Assembly: GCF_024449025.1 (NCBI RefSeq)
Contig: NZ_JAHLKM010000005.1
Coordinates: 49,605 to 113,604, forward strand
DNA: 64,000 bases
DNA from: Natronomonas aquatica
Lineage (GTDB): Archaea; Halobacteriota; Halobacteria; Halobacteriales; Haloarculaceae
Direction: 5' to 3'
Shown here: positions 9,950-22,698 of the stretch, piece after piece
Position numbering within the stretch: position 1 is the first letter of the stretch
Layout: each line of letters starts with the position of its first letter
The notes under the pieces: generated by a model
The model's input: only the letters and a program-made list of their open reading frames with translations
The model's database searches: none
Told to the model about the DNA's origin: nothing
Program-made: the position numbers and the translations under genes

Positions 9950-10053
9950 GGGCCCTTAGCTCAGTGGTCAGAGCGCTCGGCTCATACTCCCGGTGGCCGA
10001 CCCCGTCGGGATGGGACACCGAGTGGTCGCCGGTTCGAACCCGGCAGGGCCCA
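9950..10053 (+). tRNA. tRNA-Met (CAT), elongator type, with a 31-nt intron
   Basis: The acceptor GGGCCCT pairs with AGGGCCC and the discriminator is A. The D-arm is GCTCAGTGGTCAGAGC and the T-arm GCCGGTTCGAACCCGGC. The anticodon stem CTCGG/CCGAG is interrupted by an intron at 9987-10017, between positions 37 and 38, the canonical archaeal site. The loop reads CTCATA with anticodon CAT. The stem lacks the three G-C pairs of initiator tRNAs, so this is the elongator. The 3' end is the left edge of a 200-bp repeat recurring at 15598. Confidence 0.93.
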
Positions 10054-10248
10054 TCCAAACACCGAACGATTCTTAGCCGACCTAAACGGTGGATAGAACG
10101 CACCTACCGCCAATTTTCTTGTTTCAGCGTGAGTTCGACCGGTCATTTTCATCTGGAGTTCACTTGGCCACCAAACGGGGGGGCGCTGCCTTCCGGGCTT
10201 CTGTGATATTCGAAACGGGGATGGAACTAAATCAATTGCCGATTGAGG
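10046..10248 (+). repeat. Long direct repeat, left copy (at the tRNA-Met 3' end)
   Basis: This 203-bp stretch begins in the last 8 nt of tRNA-Met (AGGGCCCA) and recurs at 15598-15799 with about 85-90% identity by eye. Shared landmarks include CCAAACACCGAACGATTC, GGTGGATAGAA, CATCTGGAGTTCACTTGG and GCGCTGCCTTCCGGGCTTC. It looks like one end of an integrated or duplicated segment. GGTGGATAGAAC (10088-10099) also has an inverted partner, GTTCTATCCACC, at about 10394-10405. Confidence 0.85.
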
Positions 10249-10476
10249 GTGATCAGTTCTTGTTGTGCACAGCGAAACAGCGGTATTTCTCTGTGAGTTT
10301 AGACGGGGCTACCGATTGTTCTGTACACTTATTATTAAACACTAACTCAGCTCTGAGCACTAAGTCAAACTAAGGAAGGATTCACTAATCGGTTCTATCC
10401 ACCAACATAGCAACTAACCGCCGTCATCATAGGTGTCTAAATTGCCTTGTTGGATCGAGATACTGCGTCCAGGTGA
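10249..10476. other. Gene-free AT-rich stretch
   Basis: There is no credible coding sequence between the left repeat and the end of the transducer gene. The stretch is markedly richer in A+T than the core genes on the left. It contains the inverted partner GTTCTATCCACC of a word in the left repeat. Confidence 0.5.
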
Positions 10477-12207
10477 TCAGTTCGTCGTTTCCAAGTTTGC
10501 GTTCTCGTCAGCGGCGAGTTTGAACACGTCAACTCGGTCGTACAGCTGATCGCTTATTGCGCTGAGTTGCTGTGCGTTCGCGGCCACCTCTTCCATCGCA
10601 TCAGATTGCTCATCAACACCGTTCGAGATCTGCTGAATCGACGCCGTGATCTCTTCACTCATACCGGCTGTATCTTCCATGACCGTACTGACGACCTCGG
10701 CGTTTTCAGCCTGTGACTCGACGGCATCAGTAATCTCCTCAAGTCCTTCGCTCGTTTGATTCGCTCGCTCGTCGATCGTTTGAAGTCGTTCGGTTAGCTC
10801 TTCAACCTCATCGGCTCCGTTTTTGACTTTCTCGTTGGCGTCGGTAATACTCTCAACGAGATCCGCCGTCTGCTCTTGTACGTCGGTGATGATACCATCG
10901 ATCTTGTCGGCCGATTCCTGTGACTCCTCGGCGAGATTCTTGACCTCATCTGCGACAACTGCAAACCCCTCGCCAACATCACCCGCACGGGCAGCTTCGA
11001 TATTAGCGTTCAGGGCGAGAATATTCGTCTGATCGGCGATGTCGGCGATCATCTCGATGATTTCACCGACTTGCTCCATGCTGTCTTCAAGATGGTCGAT
11101 CCGCTGTGCGACTGTTGAGGTTGCATCGGTCGCTTCCCGGATCTGGCCAGCTGTCCCTGTCGCATCTTCGACTCCTTTTGAAGCGATACTGGCGACTTCT
11201 TCTGACTGAGAGTCGATCTCCTGAATGGTGGCTGTAATCTCTTCAATCGAAGCCGAAAGGTCATCGATGTTCTCGTTAGTCCGCTGGGAATCCTCAGCGA
11301 GATCATCAGCTCCGTTGGCCAGTTCGGCCGACGACGCGTCGATCTGTTGAATCGAGGCCGTTATTTCTTCGCTGTTCGCGCTGAGTGTCTCGCTCGTCTT
11401 GTTCAATTCCTCAGCGTTTTTCGTCAGCGTCTCTACCATGTCGCGGATATTGTCCGTCGCCCTGTTGAGGTTCTGGTTCAGTTGCGTGAACTCCTCGTAG
11501 ACCTCAGCGGCTTCGTCATAATCTTCTTCAGGTTGCGGGACAGTCGGATCGATGGTTAGATCGCCCGCTGCGAGCCGAGCAAGTTTGTCTTGTAGGTCAT
11601 CGAGAACATCCTGCTGGTACTGTTCGAGGAACTGTTTTTTGTTCCGTTGTCGGTTGCGCTCAGTCACGTCCTTCTCGATGAGCATCGCGCCGAGGAACGT
11701 CCCGCCGTCGTATAACAGCGTGACAGTCCGCTCTAGTGGCGTCTCCTGTCCGGCGACAAGCATGGTTTCCTCGCGTTGTTGAATGTCCTCGCCGCGTTCG
11801 ATCGCCTCGGAGACGATGTCGCTGGCCGAGCTGTCGTCAGCCTGTAATGCGTGTGGGACGGTTCCGAGCGCTTCCTGTTCGGTACAATCGTACAGATCCA
11901 GTACCTGCTGGTTGATGTGGGTGATCCGGCCGTCGACATCAACTACAACGGTCGGTTCCTGTAACCCATTGAGAATGCTCTGGACGATCGCCTGTGACTC
12001 ATCCGAGCGGGCTTTTTTACCGTTTCGCCGCGAGGTCTCGGTAGGCGGATTCGTTGTATTAGATCCGGACTGATCTGAGTACGATCCGTTCCCGTTTCTA
12101 CCAAGTAGTCTGTCGACGATCCCGTCTGATTCATTCGATACGTCGTTCCATTCGACGGTTTCGGCTTGATGGTCGGAGTGCCCGTCCCGCTCGGTTTGTT
12201 TGCTCAT
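10477..12207 (-). CDS. Soluble halobacterial transducer (methyl-accepting chemotaxis protein) with PAS domain
   Basis: This 576-residue protein has no membrane segment. A Ser/Asn-rich N-terminus (1-70) leads to a PAS domain (about 71-190: [22 protein letters not shown] to [13 protein letters not shown]), a short HAMP-like or coiled linker ([15 protein letters not shown]), then a long helical signalling domain (about 250-570). The conserved hairpin tip [19 protein letters not shown] with [18 protein letters not shown] is intact, so it can bind CheA/CheW. Flanking helices contain repeated [10 protein letters not shown] methylation-type stretches. It should sense a cytoplasmic signal through PAS and feed the taxis pathway. 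No che genes are in the window. Its base composition is lower in GC than the core genes. Confidence 0.92.
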
Positions 12208-12477
12208 ACCCCACCATCAGAACATTCTTATTAAATGCCTTGCTCGATTACACTTCTCGTTTTTCAATATTGGGAACCCTTTCGGCACTCGACAATTACA
12301 ATCCAAAATCAGCTTTTTAGTGGCTTATTCGGCCAATCAGTCCCAAATGTGAGACGGACCGGGAACTGCGGTTTGTTCCAGCATAAGTAACAGATATTGG
12401 TAAATATGTATAAAGATTGAACAATCTGTTCGGGTCAGTTTTAAGAACATAGTCGTTTCACGATGGATTCCGTGCAA
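12208..12477. other. AT-rich intergenic stretch with promoter-like elements
   Basis: This 270-bp gap precedes the transducer gene, so it probably carries that gene's promoter reading leftward. TATA-like sequences occur around 12405-12415 (AATATGTATAAAG) and near 12220-12235 (TTAAATGC on the opposite strand). No gene is visible. Confidence 0.4.
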
Positions 12478-13230
12478 TCAGGATTCGGAACGCGGGCGGC
12501 TGTTAGTAACGGGTAGATACGTGGCTTCGAGATATTCAAGAACACCATCGATGATCCGTCCATCATATGTCCACGCACCGTAGAAGGTGTCATCGCCGCG
12601 CTCTTCGGCGAGGAGAGCACTCTTTTGGGTTTCGTCGCCGCCGCCATCGAAGACAACAAACCAAGTCTGTGCGAGTTCGTCCGAGTCGATCGCATGTACC
12701 CGGGCCCTGCCAAGCTCAGGCGGTGCAGTGTCCGGAACTCCATAGGCATGAACCTCAAGGCCGCGGTGAGCGAGGTCTGTGTAGATCGCCTGCTGGTCAG
12801 CCAGTATTGAACACCGCTGAAATCCAGCGTGAACCGTTCCACTCCCGACTCGGCGGGCACGATCTTCGATTTCACGGGACGCGTAGAGCATCTGCTCGGT
12901 ATCGTACGACGTGAACGTCGTTTCCTTGAGGTAGCCGAGGACTGCCTCGTATTCTCCATCCGCGACACCAATCGTTTCGGACCGAGCTGGCGAGTGATCG
13001 ACGAACTTCCGGAGCGTCTCAATATCGACTCTGCTAAGGACTTCGGTGTTGTTGCTGAGGATAGCGATTGGTGGTTGTCGTGACGCTGTCTGACTCATCG
13101 AGACATTCACATTCTGTGCGGCAAAGTAGGTGGTGAGACGCTCAGCAAGCGGGTCGGATGAATCGATATTGAATAATACGAGTTCTTTTTCGAGTTGTCT
13201 GATCTGCTCGATGCCATCCTGAAGGCTCAT
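12478..13230 (-). CDS. DICT-domain sensory protein
   Basis: This 250-residue protein resembles haloarchaeal DICT (diguanylate cyclase and two-component) sensory proteins. An N-terminal part (about 1-110) includes LVLFNIDSSDPLAERLTTYFAAQNVNV and the segment ILSNNTEVL. The C-terminal part (about 115-235) has the pattern FQRCSILADQQAIYTDLAHRGLEVHAYG, then a core ending TFYGAWTYDGRIIDGVLEYLEATY. Such domains accompany two-component and light-sensing proteins and are thought to bind ligands or partners; the ligand is unknown. ATG 13230 is preferred to GTG 13233. It lies between the transducer and the divergent REC-kinase, as expected for a sensory cassette. Confidence 0.75.
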   Translation of the reverse strand: MSLQDGIEQIRQLEKELVLFNIDSSDPLAERLTTYFAAQNVNVSMSQTASRQPPIAILSNNTEVLSRVDIETLRKFVDHSPARSETIGVADGEYEAVLGYLKETTFTSYDTEQMLYASREIEDRARRVGSGTVHAGFQRCSILADQQAIYTDLAHRGLEVHAYGVPDTAPPELGRARVHAIDSDELAQTWFVVFDGGGDETQKSALLAEERGDDTFYGAWTYDGRIIDGVLEYLEATYLPVTNSRPRSES

Positions 13231-13460
13231 CACAATATGCTACGATGAGGGGGGGTATTAATAGTCGGCCTTTGATGTATTTACTCTGCTTATCCAAACT
13301 GCTGTGAAGCCAAAATATATGCTCGCTTATCCGTAGAGATTGTTAATGTCGTCACTTTCAGCGTTTGAACGTCACTCTCCGACCGCTAACTATTCAATAG
13401 GTTAAATTACAAGCCCTTTGTGTACCATACTATTTTTTATTTGAACACTATTATTGGAGT

Positions 13461-15599
13461 ATGAGTGATGCGGCAAACGCGATCCCAATTCTTCACGTGG
13501 ATGATGAGCCGGATTTTGCTGATATGGTAGCGACGTTTCTGGAGCGTGAAGATGATCGCTTTCACGTTGAAACGGAAACGAGCGCTAGCGCCGGGCTAGA
13601 TCGTCTCTCTGAGGCGCAGTTCGATTGTATCATTACCGATTACGATATGTCCGGGCAGAATGGCATCGAGTTTCTCGAAGCCGTCCGGGAAGACCATCCA
13701 GATCTCCCCGTTATCCTGTTCACCGGAAAAGGAAACGAAGAGGTCGCTAGTAATGCGATCTCCGCAGGTGTTACGGACTACCTACAGAAGGGAACCGGAA
13801 CCGACCAGTATACCGTTCTCACAAATCGAGTTCAGAACGCTGTTGAACAGAGAAAAGCCAAACAAGAACGCAACCGCCAACTAGAAGCGATTGAAACCGC
13901 GCAAGAAGGTATCGCCATCCTTGATGAGGACGGCCACTATCTCTATGTCAACCAGCGGTTCGCCGGTATCTTCGGGTACGATCCCGAGGGGTTTGTCGGC
14001 GAACACTGGGAACTCGCCTATCGAGACGAGGACATCCCCGAAGTCCGAGAGGAAATTCTTCCAGAAGTCGAACGAGAGGGGTACTGGCGCGACGAAACGA
14101 TTCATCCCAGGGCGGATGGCGGTACAGTAACCGTCGACCATACACTTGCGCTGACCGACCGGGGAGAACTCGTCTGTACAGTACGGGATATTTCTGATGA
14201 AAAAGAACGCGAACAGGCGCTTCAAGAAAAAACAGCTAGGCTAGAAGCTCTTTTCGAAAACTCGCCGGATATGATCAATATCCACGATATAGACGGCAAT
14301 ATCCTCAATCCAAACCCTCGGTTGTGTGAAAAAACCGGCTATGACTCCGTAGAACTCACCGATATGAAAGTCTGGGATCTAGACCAGGCTATCGATCCCG
14401 ATAAAATACGCACACTCTGGGAAAATATGGAAGTCGGGGATCGTCATCGGTTAGAAGGACGTTATCAACACCAAGATGTCTCAACATTCCCCGTCGAAGT
14501 GCACATTAGACGTATTCAGCTGTGTGGGGGAGATCGGTTTGTCGCAATCGCTCGGGACATCACCGAGCGCAAAGAGTACGAACACGAACTCCGGGAGAAG
14601 CGCGTTTTTGTCGAGCAGTGTCTCGACGCACTTAACGACGTGTTCTACGTGTTCGGTCCTGACCGTGATATTCTACGGTGGAATGACCGCCTCTCAGAGG
14701 TCACAGGGTACTCCGAAGAAAAGATTGCAGAGATGAAACCAGCGGATTTCTTCCCGGATGACCACGCTCCACGAATCGCCCAAGCGGTCGAAGACGTTCT
14801 GGAAACTGGCCAGGCGACGGTTCAAGCGGACTTTCTCACGAACGACGGCGAACGAATCCCCCACGAGTTCACGGGGTTTCGACTGACTGACTCTGAGGAG
14901 AATGTGTTGGGGTTTGTGGGTATCGGACGGGATCTACGGCAGCGTCAAGAGTACGAACAGCAGTTCCAACAGCGCAACGAACGGTTAGAGGAGTTTGCCA
15001 GTATCGTCAGCCACGACCTTCGGAATCCGTTGACCGTAGCTGAGGGACGCCTTGAGTTGGCACAAAACGAGTGTGACAGCCCACATCTGGAGGCCGTTGC
15101 TGATGCCCACAGTCGGATCAAGGAATTGATAGAAGAACTGCTGACGCTGGCCCGCGAGGGAACAATCGCGTTGGACCCGGAAGCAGTCTCGCTTGCGGAC
15201 CTCGCACAGGCGAGTTGGCGGACTGTTGCGACCGAGGAATCCACGCTCTCTATCGATGAAGAAGCGACGATCTGGGCGGACGAGAGCCGACTTAGACAGT
15301 TGCTTGAGAACCTGTTTCACAACGCAGTCGAACACGGAGGTGGGAACGTAACAGTCAGGGTGAGGTCCCTCGACGAGGGCGGTGGATTCTATATCGCGGA
15401 TGATGGTCCAGGAGTCCCGGAAGCCGAGCGTACATCCATCTTCGAAAGCGGAGTCACGACCGGCGAGGACGGTATCGGTGCGGGGTTAAGCATCGTCAAG
15501 CGGGTAGCTGAGGCACACGGCTGGGAGATCAACGTAACTGACAGCGATTCTGGGGGAGCCAAATTCGAAATTGCTGGCGTTGAGGGGGGATCCGAATAG
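13461..15599 (+). CDS. Hybrid response regulator / PAS sensor histidine kinase
   Basis: This 712-residue protein has an N-terminal receiver domain (about 8-125, acidic pair in HVDDEPD, phospho-acceptor Asp60 in IITDYDMSG, Thr88, Lys110). Three PAS domains follow (about 140-250, 257-370, 378-495), then a HisKA helix with His518 in FASIVSHDLRNPL, and an HATPase (about 600-705: ENLFHNAVEH, DDGPGVPEAE, GAGLSIV). All catalytic motifs look complete. It is cytoplasmic. The gene diverges from the DICT gene across 230 bp. Its TAG stop (15597-15599) lies on the first bases of the right copy of the 200-bp repeat, so the gene reaches the very end of the cassette. GC is lower than in the core genes. Confidence 0.93.
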   Translation: MSDAANAIPILHVDDEPDFADMVATFLEREDDRFHVETETSASAGLDRLSEAQFDCIITDYDMSGQNGIEFLEAVREDHPDLPVILFTGKGNEEVASNAISAGVTDYLQKGTGTDQYTVLTNRVQNAVEQRKAKQERNRQLEAIETAQEGIAILDEDGHYLYVNQRFAGIFGYDPEGFVGEHWELAYRDEDIPEVREEILPEVEREGYWRDETIHPRADGGTVTVDHTLALTDRGELVCTVRDISDEKEREQALQEKTARLEALFENSPDMINIHDIDGNILNPNPRLCEKTGYDSVELTDMKVWDLDQAIDPDKIRTLWENMEVGDRHRLEGRYQHQDVSTFPVEVHIRRIQLCGGDRFVAIARDITERKEYEHELREKRVFVEQCLDALNDVFYVFGPDRDILRWNDRLSEVTGYSEEKIAEMKPADFFPDDHAPRIAQAVEDVLETGQATVQADFLTNDGERIPHEFTGFRLTDSEENVLGFVGIGRDLRQRQEYEQQFQQRNERLEEFASIVSHDLRNPLTVAEGRLELAQNECDSPHLEAVADAHSRIKELIEELLTLAREGTIALDPEAVSLADLAQASWRTVATEESTLSIDEEATIWADESRLRQLLENLFHNAVEHGGGNVTVRVRSLDEGGGFYIADDGPGVPEAERTSIFESGVTTGEDGIGAGLSIVKRVAEAHGWEINVTDSDSGGAKFEIAGVEGGSE

Positions 15600-15799
15600 G
15601 GCCCATCCAAACACCGAACGATTCTTAGCTGACCTAATCGGTGGATAGAATCATTCTACCACCGTTTTTCTCGTTTCAGCGTGGATTCGACCGGTCATTT
15701 TCATCTGGAGTTCACTTGGCCACCAAACGGGGGGCGCTGCCTTCCGGGCTTCTGTGATATTCGACGCGGCGCTGGTACATAATTAATGGCCCATTGAGG
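15598..15799 (+). repeat. Long direct repeat, right copy
   Basis: This is the partner of 10046-10248. It starts with the same AGGGCCCATCC as the tRNA-Met 3' end and ends at ATTGAGG. Differences are scattered substitutions and one shorter G-run. Together the copies bracket the transducer, DICT and REC-kinase genes. Confidence 0.85.
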
Positions 15800-15838
15800 A
15801 TGAGGAATCGCAAGCCAGCAAGCCCCAGATATGAATTA

Positions 15839-16084
15839 TCATAAAATCGCCACGAACTGTGTGATGTTCCCGCGCGTGTTCGTGACTGGGATGACCTTCT
15901 GGTTGACCTCGTAGAGTTCGCCTTGTTTGGTCTGATTTGTCAGTTCGGCTTCCCACACGTCGCCGGCCGTGATTTGCTCCCACAGGTCTGCATAAAACGC
16001 ATCGTCTTGTTCCCCGGATTTGAGCATGCGTGGATTGCGCCCGTTCGCTCCGGACGCCGTATACCCATATTTTTCAATCGAAGT
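15839..16084 (-). pseudogene. PAS-domain fragment of a lost sensor kinase
   Basis: An open stretch between a TAG (at 16085-16087) and a TGA (15839-15841) encodes most of a single PAS domain: YGYTASGANGRNPRM, KSGEQDDAFYADLWEQI, then EAELTNQTKQGELYEVNQKV and IPVTNTRGNITQFVAI. Intact haloarchaeal relatives continue with EHDVT after FVAI; here the frame runs straight into a stop. The 5' part of the gene is missing too. The break lies about 40 bp from the right repeat, so the gene was probably cut when the cassette arrived. It is antisense to the sequence just upstream of the LOV kinase. Confidence 0.8.
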
Positions 16085-16168
16085 CTATATGAGTGCAAAA
16101 ATTTTACATGTATTATCACTCCTAGTACCCAAATATGGACTGTTATTTCGGAAGGGGGAACAGTCCAC

Positions 16169-19100
16169 TTGGGCCTCGTACTCCTCTTCGTATCGATCGC
16201 CATCGGATGCTTCGTCGCTGCCGTTTACGGATCGCGGCTTCAAGGACGGGATACGCAACTCGGGCTCAGAGCCGTGTTGGTAACGAACGGACTGTGGCTG
16301 ACCTTCCAAGCACTTGGACTGTTTACCACAAATGAGAGCCTCAGTGCCGCACTGTATATCGGCGGCCTGATCTGGGGCCTCACTGGGGTCGGCGCATGGG
16401 TGTACTTCATCTCCGCCTACACCGGTCGATCGTATCACCGAGATCGACGCTACCGTAGACTCGCGGTCGGTGTCTACCTTGGCCTCGTCACGGTCAAACT
16501 CACCAATCCGTTGTACGGCCTCTACGTTCAGACACAAATCCAGCCGGCTCCATACCCGCATCTCGTCGTCGAACCGCAACTGTTCTATTGGATCTCGTTC
16601 ACGCTCACCTACACACTCGTAGCGATCAGTTTCTACTGGCTGCTCAACGCTTTCCGCGGTTCCTCGCAGCCGACCGCGGGGCTCAGCGCGCTCGCAGTGC
16701 TTTCGCTGGTTCCGGTCATTCCACGGGCAGCCTTCACGGTACTTCCAGCCGGGGCCTTCCCGCCTGTCTTGTTAGGGGTGAGTTTCGAGCCGATCGGTGT
16801 CGCCGGCTTCACGCTTGCAATGTTGGTATTCGTCGAGGACACGTTTCGGCGAGTCGAACGCTCTGCTCGATCAGAGGTCTTCGAGAAGGCTGATGATGCC
16901 ATGTTCGTGTACGATCCCAACGGAGAACTCGTCGAAACCAACAGACAGGCCGACAGCCTACAGTCGAATATCGGCATCAGGTGTCCAACCATCGAGGCGT
17001 TCGAACAAACGTTCAAACCTGCCGATGAAGACGATGAGTCGAGCGTCGTCTCTATCGAAACCGACGGATCGACCCGGTACTTCGACATTACAATTAATCC
17101 GATGGGAATTGGGACCGAGAACGTCGGAACGGTCGCCGGCGTTCGGGATGTCACGGAGCGCAGGGAACGGAAACGCGATCTTGAATTGAAACAGCGAGCT
17201 ATGGATGAGGCGACGGTCGGGATCACGATCAGCGATCCGGACACCGAGGATAACCCGCTGGTGTATGTGAACGACGGCTTCGTCGAACAGACCGGCTACA
17301 GCCGCCAAGAGGTACTTGGACGGAACTGTCGGTTCCTGCAAGGCGACGATAGGGACCAAGCCGAGCTTGACGACCTGCGGGAAGCAATCGCGGCCGAAGA
17401 GCCGATAACCGTCGAATTGCGCAACTACCGCAAGGACGGCGAACAGTTCTGGAATCGTCTCTCGGTGACACCAGTCTACGACGAGGCCGACGACTTGACC
17501 TACTACATCGGTATCCAGCAGGACGTGACCGAGCAGAAAGAAAAGGAGCGCGAATTGCGAGCGGAACAGGAACGGTTTGAGCTGCTCACCGAGAGCGTCG
17601 AAGAGTACGCTTTCATCGTCGTCGATGAAGACGGCGACATCCGGACGTGGAATGAGGGTGCAACGAACCTCTTTGGCTACAAAGCCGAGACCGCCCTCGG
17701 GATGCCGATGGCTCACCTTCACCCTGAAGCTGACCGCCAGTCAGGGCTCCCAACCCGGGTGCTCCAGCAAGCCCGGATTGCCGGCGAAAGCAGTGATGAG
17801 GGCCGGCGCGTCCGTGCCGACGGCTCAGAGTTCTACGCCGACGTTCGCTACGCAGCCCTCGAAACCGACGACGGCGAGTTTCGGGGCCACGCGGCGATTG
17901 TTCGGGACATGACCGAAGAGCGACAACAACGTCGTAGAACCGAGCGGTTCGTTGAGGAATCCGACGACGTCGTCTCGATACTCGATGCGGACGGAACTTT
18001 TGATTATATCAGCGGTTCCGCCGATCACGTGCTCGGTCACGATTCCGACGCTCTACTCGAAGAGAGCCTCTTTGATTACCTACATCCCAGCGACCGGAAG
18101 CGGGTCATGGAAGCGTTCTTTGACTGCGTCGAAGATATAGAAGGCGACATCGAGATCGAAGGCCGGTTTGAATCCGGCAGTAGCGAGTGGTTAAACGTCA
18201 ATATCAGGTGCCGCAATATGCGTGCCGATGATCCGATCGACGGGATACTCCTGTATCTCCGTGACGTGACCGACAGCAAAGAGCGCACCCGGCGGCTGGA
18301 AGCGATTTTCAACGGCACGTTCCAGTTCACGGGGTTGTTAGAGCCCGACTCGACGGTGATCGAGGTCAACGACGCCGCGCTCGAATTCGGCGGGTTCGAG
18401 CGCGAGAACGTTGTCGGAGAGCCGTTCTACGAAGCACCATGGTGGACACACTCCGAAGAAGTCAATAACCGTATCCAGGACGCACTTGCGCGTGCAGCCG
18501 AAGGCGAGTTCGTTCGCTATGAGACAGATGTCAAGGGTGCAGAGGGACTTGCGACGATCGATTTTTCTGTCAAGCCAGTGACTGACGAGGACGGCGATGT
18601 GACGCTGCTCATCGTGGAAGGGCGCGACATCACAGCCCAACGACAACAAGGGCAACACCTGAATGTAATGCAGCGCGTGATGCGGCACAACATGCGAAAC
18701 GATCTGAGCAAAGTCCGAGGATGGGCTGAGTTACTCGCCGAGGAGTCCGATCCCGACGAACGGGCTCGCCAATTCGAGACGATCGAACGCATTTTGAAAA
18801 AGTGGGGGAGTATGACGGAGAACATAGAGCGAATCCAGGGCGCGATACAGTCCCAGCGAGACGAGCAGACTACCGTCGACGCGTCGGGACTCGTAGAGAA
18901 AGTAACAGAATCAAGCAAGGAAACGTTCCCAGAAGCTGAAATTGAGGCAGAAATCGCTGATATAGAGTCTGCACCGGTTCCAGCGGTGCTCGGTGAAGCG
19001 CTGCGGGAGTTGATCGAGAACGCCATCGAAGCGACCCCGAACGACGACTGCCGCGTTGAGGTTCGGCTCTCTCGGCCGGACAATAATTGGGTTTATGTTG

Positions 19101-19333
19101 ACGTGGTCGATAACGGCTCCGGGATGCCCGAGATGGAAGCCGACGTGCTCGAAAACGGTGAAGAGACGCCGCTCAATCACGGGAAAGGGCTCGGTGTGTG
19201 GATGATACGGATGCTCGTCAAACAGGCCGGCGGTGATGTCTCTGTTGATGCGACCCCGGATGGGACGACGGTCAGTCTCATGATACCAGTCAGAGACGAA
19301 ACTGCTACCAACACGCACTCAACGACGTACTGA
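16169..19333 (+). CDS. Membrane histidine kinase with LOV (blue-light) and further PAS domains
   Basis: The protein is about 1054 residues. The N-terminus (about 1-220) has seven hydrophobic segments of the histidine-kinase 7TM type. After it come a short PAS, then a LOV domain (nucleotides about 17190-17540) with the full flavin motif GRNCRFLQG (Cys387, codon 17327-17329) plus VELRNYRKDGEQFWN and YYIGIQQDVT. At least three more PAS domains follow. The kinase core has H-box MRHNMRND (His840), N-box ELIENAIEA, G1 DNGSGMP and G2 HGKGLGVW. The flavin-bonding Cys predicts blue-light sensing. The start is uncertain: no ATG or GTG lies at the expected place. TTG 16169 fits the membrane domain best; the frame stays open to an ATG at 15923, but that part is antisense to the PAS fragment. 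Confidence 0.85.
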   Translation: MGLVLLFVSIAIGCFVAAVYGSRLQGRDTQLGLRAVLVTNGLWLTFQALGLFTTNESLSAALYIGGLIWGLTGVGAWVYFISAYTGRSYHRDRRYRRLAVGVYLGLVTVKLTNPLYGLYVQTQIQPAPYPHLVVEPQLFYWISFTLTYTLVAISFYWLLNAFRGSSQPTAGLSALAVLSLVPVIPRAAFTVLPAGAFPPVLLGVSFEPIGVAGFTLAMLVFVEDTFRRVERSARSEVFEKADDAMFVYDPNGELVETNRQADSLQSNIGIRCPTIEAFEQTFKPADEDDESSVVSIETDGSTRYFDITINPMGIGTENVGTVAGVRDVTERRERKRDLELKQRAMDEATVGITISDPDTEDNPLVYVNDGFVEQTGYSRQEVLGRNCRFLQGDDRDQAELDDLREAIAAEEPITVELRNYRKDGEQFWNRLSVTPVYDEADDLTYYIGIQQDVTEQKEKERELRAEQERFELLTESVEEYAFIVVDEDGDIRTWNEGATNLFGYKAETALGMPMAHLHPEADRQSGLPTRVLQQARIAGESSDEGRRVRADGSEFYADVRYAALETDDGEFRGHAAIVRDMTEERQQRRRTERFVEESDDVVSILDADGTFDYISGSADHVLGHDSDALLEESLFDYLHPSDRKRVMEAFFDCVEDIEGDIEIEGRFESGSSEWLNVNIRCRNMRADDPIDGILLYLRDVTDSKERTRRLEAIFNGTFQFTGLLEPDSTVIEVNDAALEFGGFERENVVGEPFYEAPWWTHSEEVNNRIQDALARAAEGEFVRYETDVKGAEGLATIDFSVKPVTDEDGDVTLLIVEGRDITAQRQQGQHLNVMQRVMRHNMRNDLSKVRGWAELLAEESDPDERARQFETIERILKKWGSMTENIERIQGAIQSQRDEQTTVDASGLVEKVTESSKETFPEAEIEAEIADIESAPVPAVLGEALRELIENAIEATPNDDCRVEVRLSRPDNNWVYVDVVDNGSGMPEMEADVLENGEETPLNHGKGLGVWMIRMLVKQAGGDVSVDATPDGTTVSLMIPVRDETATNTHSTTY

Positions 19334-19687
19334 AGGTGACCCTGGAAATGGGTACTTTACCATGGGATCACAGCGAGAACGAGTCCCGATGGCCAGGCCA
19401 TGCCCGGACTAGGGGCCATACGAGAGATTGCCGTAGATCATGCGTACATGACGCTGTAACCCTCAGAAGGTGGGGACAGCATGCACAACAGCTTGGAAAT
19501 TCGAGATCGGTGTCACGTCCAGACATATGTCACTCGATAACAAACACTCTTGGTTAAATCTCCTATTTTTCGACGTTCCAGAGCCTGTATACCCAAATTT
19601 GTCTTTTTGAACTAGTTCCATCGATCGTTTCTGGCTGGAGCTCACCTGAAATGGAATTTTCGCTCTACACCGCCCGGGAGAGACAAG
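19334..19687. other. Gene-free stretch between the LOV kinase and the insertion element
   Basis: I see no supported gene. The sequence is intermediate in GC. A short stretch at about 19630-19650 (GCTGGAGCTCACCTG) weakly resembles part of the 200-bp repeat, but too little to call a third copy. Confidence 0.4.
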
Positions 19688-19697
19688 TTGACATCCT

Positions 19698-19717
19698 CCT
19701 GCGCCTGAAGACGCAGG
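19698..19717 (-). repeat. Right-end hairpin of the first TnpB element
   Basis: CCTGCG and CGCAGG are perfect 6-bp arms around an 8-nt loop. Such right-end stem-loops are recognition sites for TnpA and also form the 3' part of the TnpB guide RNA scaffold. Confidence 0.7.
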
Positions 19718-19736
19718 AATCCCAAGCGTGGGGATA

Positions 19737-21065
19737 TTAAGGTCTACAGTCCACCACCTCTGTCTGCGGTTGGAATCCGCAGGAGAGGTCATACAGGTAG
19801 ACTGCTGGCTGTGCCAACCAGCCGGTACACCTATCCCCGGACAACTGCCCGGAAGACTCGGAGTTACTTTCATCGACGCTGTTTATATCGAGACGGATGT
19901 TCTCCGCCCCATTCACATCCGCGTTGAACGCATCATTGTGTTCGTCGCACACGTACAGACCACGTTCAACCCGCTGATTCTCATCTGTTTTCCCGCACAC
20001 GCAACACGTCTTACTGGTATTCCGTTCGTCCACTTCGTTCACTTCGATACCTTCCACTTTCGCCTTGTACGTGAAAATCGAGGTGAAGCGGTCGAACGCC
20101 CAGCCGTGCAAGTCGAGGTTGCCGTGCCGACCCCAGTTTTTCGCCTCGCCATCGCCGTCTTCACGCACTCTTTCCAAGTCACCAATATTGATTCGACCAA
20201 CCTGTTTCTCAACACACCGCTCAACGATGTGCTTGGCGAGACTGTGGAAAAAGTGGGTGCGGCGGTCACTCCATTTCGCATGGAGTCGCGTTGCTCGCTT
20301 GCCGCCTGAGTCGTCGCACTTGGCGATTTCTTTCGGGAAGTAGTACCCGTCTTGTTTCAGACGGTTGCCCGGATACAAGTCGGCTTCTTCCGTGCTGTAG
20401 GCAACAGCGGCGAAATTGCAGATGCCGAGGTCGATGCCAGCGGTTTCATCACCGGGAGCGTCTGGGGTTTCAATCTCGTCTTTGCAGACGATGTGAAGCT
20501 CCCACTGGCCTTTCGCACGGTTGTAGACGGCACGCACCTGTTGGACGTTCTCAACAGTCGCGTCAGGCCGGGTTTCGTATTCGACCAGCATATACTCCCA
20601 CGCTTTCGGGTGTTCTTTGTGGTTTGCGCCTTTGCTGAGGCGAATCTTGTTGTGTTTCTGGTCGTGCTTGAACCCGTTCTGTTTCCACGTCACCGTGCTA
20701 CGGGGGTGTTCTTCGTGAACACGATTGCCGTCTTGGTCGTAGTAGTTGCGTTTGCGGTAGCCCGGCGGGTTCGCACGGTCATCGGACTTGCGTTTCTGAT
20801 ACCACGAGTGAAAGCTTTCAGCAAGCTCCTCAAGAACTCGCTGACTGGACTGGCTATGCAGTCCGTTGTATTTTGGATGTGTCTTCAGCTCGCGTTTCAA
20901 GTCTTTATGATCGGGGATCTCGCCGGTTTCGTCCCAGACGTTGCGGGCGTGGTAGTTGGCGACGTTCCAGAGTTTGCTGGCACTCCACCCATGCCGGTCG
21001 AGCGACTCTGCAACCTGTGAGTAGTTGCAGATTTTCGCTTGGTGGGTGCGGTGAACTTTCAGCAT
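19737..21065 (-). CDS. tnpB: TnpB RNA-guided endonuclease (IS1341 type)
   Basis: This 442-residue protein has a complete RuvC-like triad: Asp212 in AGIDLGICNFA, Glu298 in IGDLERV and Asp383 in FNADVNGAENI. The zinc-ribbon has Cys354 and Cys357 (CCVCGK) but the second pair is Cys373 and His376 (VCDEH), where Cys-x2-Cys is usual. The length is normal for haloarchaeal TnpB. TnpB uses an RNA from its own right end to cut matching DNA and keep the element in place. The C-terminus, CTGWLAQPAVYLYDLSCGF, is shared with a decayed tail in the small element at 30.1 kb. The reading frame looks intact, so it may be active. Confidence 0.93.
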   Translation of the reverse strand: MLKVHRTHQAKICNYSQVAESLDRHGWSASKLWNVANYHARNVWDETGEIPDHKDLKRELKTHPKYNGLHSQSSQRVLEELAESFHSWYQKRKSDDRANPPGYRKRNYYDQDGNRVHEEHPRSTVTWKQNGFKHDQKHNKIRLSKGANHKEHPKAWEYMLVEYETRPDATVENVQQVRAVYNRAKGQWELHIVCKDEIETPDAPGDETAGIDLGICNFAAVAYSTEEADLYPGNRLKQDGYYFPKEIAKCDDSGGKRATRLHAKWSDRRTHFFHSLAKHIVERCVEKQVGRINIGDLERVREDGDGEAKNWGRHGNLDLHGWAFDRFTSIFTYKAKVEGIEVNEVDERNTSKTCCVCGKTDENQRVERGLYVCDEHNDAFNADVNGAENIRLDINSVDESNSESSGQLSGDRCTGWLAQPAVYLYDLSCGFQPQTEVVDCRP

Positions 21066-21366
21066 CGCGTGGAACGCCTCTATAAGTGCTTATAACAACC
21101 TAAATTGTAAAGGTTGTGGTTGGAGTTGAATATCCAGACGTGGTGTAGCCGGTGGGTTGACCATTGGAGTATCGGCTTCATCACCCGCCTGTTCGGTCCT
21201 CGGTTCCGACTTGCGGTCGGAACACTCGTCCCTCACGGGAAGGCGGGTGTATTCACCTCGAATCTCTATAATCTCCGTCGATTTGTAATTGGTGAACGGA
21301 CAAATGTTATCACACCGTATTGGACAGGCGCGGAAGGTTTTTTGATGGTCGTGTCCCCTCTCGAAC

Positions 21367-22698
21367 ATGGACGACCTTGAGACGACGACCACAGATCTAG
21401 TGATCCCCGACGAACGCGTTTACGGGACCTGCGGGACGACCGAGTTCCCCCGGGTCGGCGTGATCGAACAGGACTGGGAGACGAACCCCATCCCGGAGGA
21501 CCGCCTCGCGGCCGAAGCGAGCGCGGCAGTCGCGGAACTCGCCCTCGAAGACGTCCCGGCCGGCGGCGAGGTCGCCGTCGGCGCCGGCTCGCGCGGCATC
21601 GCGAACGTCCCGGAGATCGTTCGCGGCGTCGTGGAGGGTCTTTCCGACCGCGGCTACGAGCCGTTCGTCTTCCCGGCGATGGGGAGCCACGGCGGCGCGA
21701 CCGCCGAGGGCCAACGCGAGAAGCTCGCCGCGCTCGGCGTCACCGAGGCGGCTGTGGGGTGTGAAGTCCGCGCGACGATGGAGACGGAGATCGTCGGCGA
21801 AACCGACGATCACGGGATCGCCGTCCACGCCGACGCCAACGCCGCCGCGGCGGACGCGATCGTGCCGGTCAACCGCGTGAAGCCGCACACGGACTTCGAC
21901 GGCGACGTCGAGAGCGGTCTCTCGAAGATGCTCGTTATCGGCATGGGCAAACAGCGGGGCGCCCAGATGGCCCACCGCTGGGCGCTGGACTGGAGCTTCC
22001 GCAACATGCTTCCGGAGATCGCCTCGTTGATCATCGATCGACTTCCGGTGGTCGGCGGCGTCGCCGTCGTCGAGGACCTCCACGACGACACCACGATCAT
22101 CGAGGGCGTCCCGCCGGAGGGCTTCCTCTCGCGGGAGGCCGAGCTGCTCGAGATCGCCTACGAACAGCTCCCTACGCTCCCGTTCGATGACCTCGACGTG
22201 CTCGTGCTCGACCGCATGGGCAAGGACATAAGCGGTCCCGGGATGGATCCGAACGTGCTCCAGCGGCGCCCCTACGAGCCGGAGCCGATCCTCGAGCATC
22301 CGCGATACACGCGCGTATATACCCGGTCTCTCACCCAACCCTCACACGGTAACGCCATCGGGCTCGGACTCGCGGACCTCGTCCACGCCGACCTGATCGA
22401 GGAAATGGAACCGGAGAAGGCGTTCACGAACGCCGTGACCGCGAGCGCGCTTCGGGGGATCCGCACCCCGACGGCCGTCGAGAACGACCGGGCCGGCCTC
22501 ACCGTCTGTCTGTCCACGATCGGCGTGAACGAACCCGAGAGCGTCCGGCTCGTCCGAGCGCGCGACACGATGCGTCTCGGCACTCTCGTCGCGAGCGAGG
22601 CGCTCGTCGAGGAGGCGCGCGAGCGAGAGGACCTTCGCGTCGTCGCCGAACCCGAGCCGATCGACTTCGAAGACGACGATTTCCTCGCGTTCCCGTGA
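21367..22698 (+). CDS. LarA-like (DUF2088 / nickel-dependent lactate racemase family) protein
   Basis: The 443-residue protein looks like the LarA/DUF2088 family. It has an N-terminal domain with VAVGAGSRGIANVPEIVRGV and FPAMGSHGGATAEGQREKLAALG (about 100-130), NRVKPHTDFDGDVESGLSKM (about 180-200), and a C-terminal half with DRMGKDISGPGMDPNVLQR. LarA enzymes racemise 2-hydroxy acids with a nickel-pincer cofactor. The histidines SHGG and KPH are compatible with that, but the substrate here is unknown and no larB/C/E genes are nearby. The ATG at 21367 lies 105 bp from the end of the TnpB element, so core sequence resumes here. Confidence 0.7.
   Translation: MDDLETTTTDLVIPDERVYGTCGTTEFPRVGVIEQDWETNPIPEDRLAAEASAAVAELALEDVPAGGEVAVGAGSRGIANVPEIVRGVVEGLSDRGYEPFVFPAMGSHGGATAEGQREKLAALGVTEAAVGCEVRATMETEIVGETDDHGIAVHADANAAAADAIVPVNRVKPHTDFDGDVESGLSKMLVIGMGKQRGAQMAHRWALDWSFRNMLPEIASLIIDRLPVVGGVAVVEDLHDDTTIIEGVPPEGFLSREAELLEIAYEQLPTLPFDDLDVLVLDRMGKDISGPGMDPNVLQRRPYEPEPILEHPRYTRVYTRSLTQPSHGNAIGLGLADLVHADLIEEMEPEKAFTNAVTASALRGIRTPTAVENDRAGLTVCLSTIGVNEPESVRLVRARDTMRLGTLVASEALVEEAREREDLRVVAEPEPIDFEDDDFLAFP

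What the first reader, a model, noticed from the sequence alone, without database searches (positions are those of the whole stretch)
10046..15799. tRNA-Met-linked 5.5-kb sensory cassette bounded by 200-bp direct repeats
About 200 bp starting in the last 8 nt of an intron-bearing tRNA-Met recur at 15598, with scattered differences. Between the copies are a soluble chemotaxis transducer, a DICT protein and a REC-PAS kinase, all lower in GC than the core genes. The kinase stop codon overlaps the first bases of the right repeat. This is what an integrated island with att sites would look like, but no integrase is inside. Because only 8 nt of the repeat belong to the tRNA, an alternative is tandem duplication of the tRNA downstream flank followed by cargo gain.
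Basis: partly seen in the sequence, partly recalled or inferred. Interest (0 to 1): 0.72.

Follow-up and report, generated by a model that had tools for sequence, protein, structure and literature searches.

The report
Sensory-gene island bounded by attachment sites
In a salt-loving archaeon (very probably Natronomonas), a 5.5-kb block of sensory genes sits between two copies of a roughly 200-bp sequence that marks where virus-like integrating DNA docks at tRNA genes, so it looks like a mobile island that has lost its own integrase; the kind is known, but this docking sequence turns up in scattered genomes across the whole order and beside unrelated integrases.

Summary
In detail: 10046-10252 and 15598-15803 are direct repeats (88% identical), the left one starting in the last 8 nt of an intron-bearing tRNA-Met, with PAS-MCP, DICT and REC-PAS-kinase genes between them.

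The repeat is not tRNA flank. A third own copy, on a separate low-GC contig, lies 47 bp after an SNJ2-family integrase gene. A profile of the repeat hits 82 of 382 genomes of the order. Of 29 loci inspected, 20 begin in the last bases of tRNA-Met, -Val or -Pro, and 4 more follow a duplicated tRNA tail. Six copies away from tRNAs abut SNJ2-family integrases. Upstream flanks are syntenic between related genomes; downstream flanks are not.

Best reading: each repeat is an ~11-bp att core (AGGGCCCATCC, shared with SNJ2's attP end) plus an element-borne arm. The 5.55-kb cassette is an integrase-less element joined by site-specific recombination in tandem with an older element; low GC continues to ~21.3 kb. 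Natronomonas sp. CBA1123 shows the intact counterpart: tRNA-repeat-58 kb-integrase-core-repeat.

Flank duplication is not supported. Present mobility and rescue in trans are inferred only. Integrase-less and tandem tRNA islands are known in archaea; a 200-bp arm shared by several integrase lineages appears undescribed.

The parts
9950..10053 (+). intron-bearing tRNA-Met(CAT); its last 8 nt (AGGGCCCA) are the start of repeat A (attB half-site)
   Evidence: Rfam RF00005 9950-10053; ARAGORN with introns
10046..10252 (+). repeat A: att core AGGGCCCATCC(A) plus ~190-bp element arm, at the tRNA (attL-like)
10046..15597 (.). cassette A, 5.55 kb, integrase-less, GC 0.525
10477..12207 (-). chemotaxis transducer: PAS plus MCP signalling domain, 576 aa
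   Evidence: Pfam PF00015 1.6e-45, PF08448
12478..13233 (-). DICT-domain protein, 251 aa; DICT-MCP pair recurs in four genomes of the family
   Evidence: Pfam PF10069 6.3e-14; pair conservation
13461..15599 (+). REC-PAS-PAS-PAS-HisKA-HATPase kinase, 712 aa; its stop codon overlaps the att core of repeat B
   Evidence: sequence
15598..15803 (+). repeat B: the same core plus arm, away from any tRNA (junction between cassette A and the older unit)
15804..21300 (.). older low-GC unit to the right of repeat B; right att end not found
15923..19333 (+). 7TM-PAS(x4)-HisKA-HATPase kinase ORF (true start probably inside)
   Evidence: Pfam PF16927, PF13426, PF02518
19737..21065 (-). IS200/IS605-family TnpB
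   Evidence: NF040570 2.9e-54; PF01385

Best explanation
The two repeats are attachment-site copies of a family of integrating elements that use SNJ2-family tyrosine integrases and insert at the 3' end of tRNA-Met. Each copy is a short core (AGGGCCCATCC, possibly 3-5 nt longer on the left) plus an element-borne arm of about 190 bp that ends up next to the tRNA after integration. An older element (repeat B and what follows) occupied the site first. A second element integrated at the tRNA-proximal att site, giving tRNA-core-arm A-cassette-core-arm B. Cassette A now carries only sensory genes and no integrase, so it is a cis-mobilizable-type remnant. A matching integrase with the same core survives on contig C21 of the same genome and could in principle excise the cassette in trans. 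Shown: the repeats, their link to tRNA ends and integrases, variable cargo, foreign composition, empty relatives. Inferred: order of events, loss of the integrase, rescue in trans, present mobility.
For: Third copy 47 bp 3' of an SNJ2-family integrase on low-GC contig C21; best phage hit of that integrase is SNJ2 itself, 36% over 93%, 8e-67. SNJ2's attP end reads GTCAGGGCCCAT followed by CC, the same core, and SNJ2 integrates into tRNA-Met (PMC5867852). A profile of the repeat hits 82 of 382 genomes. Of 29 inspected loci, 20 start in the last nt of tRNA-Met, -Val or -Pro and 4 follow a duplicated tRNA tail. Six full copies away from tRNAs abut SNJ2-family integrases. Upstream flanks syntenic, downstream unrelated. 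Natronomonas sp. CBA1123: tRNA-repeat-58.6 kb low GC-integrase-core-repeat. Empty sites G005 and G019; G003 with one scar copy before the CBS gene. Cassette composition matches C21 (L1 0.15) and not the core genes (0.57). Copies A, B and C21 equally diverged, with two constrained blocks.
Against: No integrase or remnant lies in the cassette. The left half-site at B (ATCCGAATAGGG) departs from the CCGNCAGGG form of other copies, so that junction could be illegitimate. No second core ends the right-hand unit, and the CBS gene that follows tRNA-Met in three relatives is on another contig here, so the original right border cannot be mapped. Integrases next to the repeat are polyphyletic, which a simple one-integrase-one-arm model does not predict.
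Confidence: 0.8

Rival explanations
1. The 200-bp repeat is resident chromosomal flank of tRNA-Met that was duplicated in tandem, and cargo was gained later between the copies.
For: A long repeat with only 8 nt of tRNA is unusual for an att site. In Natronomonas sp. CBA1123 GC returns to host level soon after the second copy, so a copy can lie next to native DNA.
Against: The repeat is absent at the same tRNA in G005 and G019, follows tRNA-Val and tRNA-Pro elsewhere, and abuts integrases away from tRNAs. Copies A, B and C21 are about equally diverged.
Confidence: 0.05
2. Cassette and right-hand unit are one older composite island: repeat B was left inside a single element by homologous recombination or att-site swapping, so the 5.5-kb unit was never separately mobile.
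For: Low GC is continuous across repeat B to 21.3 kb; both sides carry PAS kinases and have similar tetranucleotide usage. The B half-site is degenerate.
Against: The tRNA-core-arm-cargo-core-arm layout is exactly what serial integration gives, and it recurs with an integrase in CBA1123.
Confidence: 0.15
3. The arm is a domesticated noncoding element (tRNA trailer, terminator or regulatory RNA) spread with tRNAs, and the sensory genes merely lie beside it.
For: About 45 nt after the tRNA there is a hairpin followed by a T-run; pairing (60%) and covariation exceed all slid controls and nearly all shuffles.
Against: Only 60% of cells pair, RNAalifold finds no consensus structure, no Rfam match, and copies occur beside integrases without a tRNA.
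Confidence: 0.08

Closest known systems
SNJ2 and SNJ2-type integrative elements of haloarchaea (betapleolipovirus SNJ2; PMC5867852, PMC8371274)
   Same: tRNA-Met 3' acceptor end as target; core AGGGCCCATCC; core next to an SNJ2-family integrase gene in C21 and other copies
   Different: Cassette has no integrase and no virus genes; SNJ2 lacks the 200-bp arm at its attP
Cis-mobilizable elements / integrase-less ssrA islands of Dehalococcoides (PMC3146451)
   Same: Tandem islands at an RNA gene, each bounded by copies of its 3' end, many without an integration module, proposed to be mobilised by neighbours
   Different: Dehalococcoides uses a serine recombinase and a 20-bp repeat; here a tyrosine integrase, a short core and a 200-bp conserved arm
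Integrase-less integrated elements and tandem integrations in archaea (reviewed in PMC8371274); Haloquadratum 6.7-kb tRNA-Thr remnant without integrase (PMC3119063)
   Same: tRNA-bounded foreign region without an integrase, interpreted as a remnant
   Different: Repeats there are partial tRNA copies; here most of the repeat is an element arm unrelated to the tRNA
Pleolipovirus attP embedded in a bridging CDS (PMC7911831)
   Same: att core overlaps a coding sequence (here the end of the kinase gene)
   Different: There the CDS bridges integrase and a CxxC gene; here the overlap is only the stop codon

Membership tests
SNJ2-type integrative element | carries an SNJ2-family tyrosine integrase gene | tested here: not met
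   No hit with an HMM of 26 SNJ2-family integrases or with tblastn in 9.9-21.5 kb
SNJ2-type integrative element | att core at the 3' acceptor end of a tRNA gene | tested here: met
   Core AGGGCCCATCC at the tRNA-Met end and at 15598, same as SNJ2
SNJ2-type integrative element | related att region lies beside an SNJ2-family integrase in intact relatives | tested here: met
   C21, G001, G003, G116, G181, G325
SNJ2-type integrative element | pleolipovirus structural or replication genes | tested here: not met
   Pfam and NCBIfam of the island ORFs give only MCP, DICT, histidine kinases and TnpB
Cis-mobilizable element (CIME) | flanked by att sites, with no integration or transfer genes | tested here: met
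Cis-mobilizable element (CIME) | att sites functional; mobilised by a related integrase or by accretion | not testable with these tools
   A related integrase with the same core exists on C21, but activity needs an experiment; the B half-site is degenerate
Cis-mobilizable element (CIME) | site unoccupied in relatives | tested here: met
   G005 and G019 have tRNA-Met followed by the CBS gene without the repeat; G003 has one scar copy
Integrative and conjugative element (ICE/IME) | relaxase or conjugation genes | tested here: not met
   None among the ORFs of 10-21.3 kb
Integron gene cassette | single-gene cassettes with attC sites inserted by IntI | not tested
   Several genes on both strands and no integron integrase seen; no attC search was run

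The most novel reading that the evidence does not exclude
The ~190-bp arm is a shared docking end traded among islands across the haloarchaeal order: it travels independently of the integrase, because hybrid excision between tandem islands swaps arms. Elements with different SNJ2-family integrases, and integrase-less cassettes such as this one, would then belong to one exchange pool at tRNA-Met, -Val and -Pro, so any resident integrase could move any cassette.
Probability: 0.35. Interest if true: 0.72.

Novelty: new variant of a known kind. Interest (0 to 1): 0.5.

Why it matters
It turns an odd long repeat into a searchable marker: one profile finds the tRNA-proximal end of integrated islands in about a fifth of the genomes sampled in the order, including islands with no integrase that integrase-based surveys would miss. 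It suggests how sensory genes could be delivered and stacked at tRNA genes in haloarchaea, and poses a testable question: why unrelated integrases share one conserved arm.

Tried and rejected
Flank duplication: rejected on the spread of the repeat and on empty relatives. Coding function of the repeat: reading frames are not shared because copies differ by single-nt gaps. Structured RNA: partial hairpin only, no RNAalifold consensus, no Rfam match. The repeat in named phages, plasmids or viral contigs: none. Close relatives of the C21 integrase in viral contigs: none. Right border by synteny: not possible, because the CBS gene is on C47 and the DUF362 gene at 21367 is absent from the close relatives with this locus. 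Whether C21 is circular: no end overlap, undecided.

Full report
OBSERVATION. The repeats are as described: 10046-10252 and 15598-15803, 88% identical, E about 1e-69. Repeat A begins with the last 8 nt of an intron-bearing tRNA-Met at 9950-10053. Between them lie a PAS-MCP transducer, a DICT protein and a REC-PAS-PAS-PAS-HisKA-HATPase kinase; the kinase stop TAG (15597-15599) shares two bases with repeat B. GC drops from about 0.68 to 0.525, and tetranucleotide usage is far from the neighbouring genes (L1 0.57) but close to a mobile-looking contig of the same genome (0.15). Low GC continues past repeat B to about 21.3 kb, through a 7TM-PAS kinase and a TnpB gene, so the foreign stretch is about 11 kb.

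WHAT THE REPEAT IS. Searching the own genome gave a third copy (89% to A) on contig C21, a 40-kb low-GC contig of copper and heavy-metal genes, 47 bp after the stop of a 369-aa tyrosine integrase. The best phage match of that integrase is SNJ2 (36% over 93%, 8e-67). SNJ2 integrates into tRNA-Met (PMC5867852), and its attP end reads GTCAGGGCCCAT followed by CC, the core found here. A review notes that the SNJ2 att site may be no more than the amino-acid acceptor end (PMC8371274), so having only 8 nt of tRNA in the repeat is expected.

CENSUS. A sequence-only profile of eight copies finds the block in 82 of 382 genomes of the order. Of 29 loci inspected, 20 begin within the last nt of a tRNA gene: 16 tRNA-Met, with and without intron, 3 tRNA-Val and 1 tRNA-Pro. 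Four more follow a duplicated tRNA tail 113-138 bp past a complete tRNA. Five have no tRNA. Bases before CCCATCCA follow each tRNA's own end. Six full copies away from tRNAs lie beside an SNJ2-family integrase (C21, G001, G003 at 623 kb, G116, G181, G325), and a partial copy in G145 does so in inverted orientation. Copies without tRNA or integrase also exist (window B, G135, G208, G381). Among related genomes the DNA upstream of the tRNA is syntenic and the DNA downstream of the block is not. This is the signature of an integration hotspot with a conserved element end.

TYPE SPECIMEN AND EMPTY SITES. That is the architecture of the window with the integrase still present. G005 and G019 have tRNA-Met followed by the CBS gene and no block. 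G003 has tRNA-Met, two duplicated tRNA tails, one block truncated against the end of an insertion sequence, then the CBS gene. In the own genome the CBS gene is on another contig, so the right flank is rearranged and the original right border cannot be fixed.

MECHANISM. Recombination of attP (tail-core-arm) with attB (tRNA-core) places the arm next to the tRNA; a second integration there gives tRNA-core-arm A-element-core-arm B. This accounts for two long direct repeats without a 200-bp crossover site. Copies A, B and C21 are about equally diverged, with bases 1-33 and 101-165 nearly invariant and the rest about 60-82% identical, which fits independent elements under constraint rather than a recent duplication. 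Loss of the integrase from cassette A is inferred; no remnant is detectable. Rescue by the C21 integrase is possible but untested, and the B half-site is degenerate.

SURPRISE. Integrases adjacent to the block fall into at least four separate parts of the SNJ2-family tree. The G116 one is sister to SNJ2, whose own attP lacks the block. The arm therefore seems not tied to one integrase. Swapping of arms by hybrid excision from tandem islands would explain it and remains a hypothesis. A hairpin with a T-run about 45 nt after the tRNA shows covariation above controls but pairs in only 60% of cells, and no consensus fold emerges; a terminator role is possible, not shown.

CARGO. The DICT-MCP pair recurs in four genomes of the family (64/74%, 60/68%, 53/63%, 51/67%), while the kinase does not accompany it there. 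In G310 and G273, whose block copies are on record, the pair lies elsewhere in the genome.

KNOWN AND NEW. Integrase-less integrated elements and tandem integrations are documented in archaea (PMC8371274), and tandem, often integrase-less islands at one RNA gene are described for Dehalococcoides as possible cis-mobilizable elements (PMC3146451). I found no description of the shared 200-bp arm, but the key SNJ2 integrase paper was not readable here.

Noticed in passing
L014, L010, L018, L031, L033, L038 and others; e.g. L041:8390-8770, L040:7840-8090: Arrays of duplicated tRNA-Met 3' tails: 10 of 30 tRNA-Met loci carry 1-3 extra copies of the last 23 nt at roughly 90-200 bp spacing; in G003 and G019 the linkers are rich in GAGCGAAGCGAGTGA-like words. 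Integrated elements can sit after the last tail, also for tRNA-Val; they look like surrogate attB sites.
   Followed up: partly
window 19697-21065 (-): TnpB gene with an overlapping match (1.4e-18, below gathering score) to Rfam sot0042, a sense overlapping transcript.
   Followed up: no
window 21186-21269 and L040:8242-8324: The 84-bp sequence upstream of this TnpB gene also abuts the truncated repeat copy in G003, so a related insertion sequence end truncated the repeat there.
   Followed up: partly
window about 15830-16050 (-): By-eye reading of a PAS-domain-like coding fragment (RNPRMLKSGEQDDAFYADLWEQ...) right after repeat B, without a kinase; looks like a decayed sensor gene.
   Followed up: no
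L192:3118-3159 (-) and 14555-14754 (+): Inverted partial copy with an SNJ2-family integrase 11.4 kb from the tRNA-Met copy in G145; looks like an integrase-mediated inversion.
   Followed up: partly
L203:12843-12880 and G001 core at C23:108864: attP-like sites with near-perfect inverted arms TCTGGATGG...CCATCCAGA around the core, the expected form of tyrosine-recombinase core sites.
   Followed up: partly
G000 contig C21: 40-kb low-GC contig with copper and heavy-metal transport genes, multicopper oxidase and integrase; plasmid or island not resolved.
   Followed up: partly
window 46-50 kb and 56-64 kb: Two further low-GC stretches (0.52-0.58) with non-core tetranucleotide usage.
   Followed up: no
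own genome C57 versus C47: The CBS gene that follows tRNA-Met in G003, G005 and G019 is on a different contig here, so a chromosomal rearrangement has a breakpoint near the island.
   Followed up: partly
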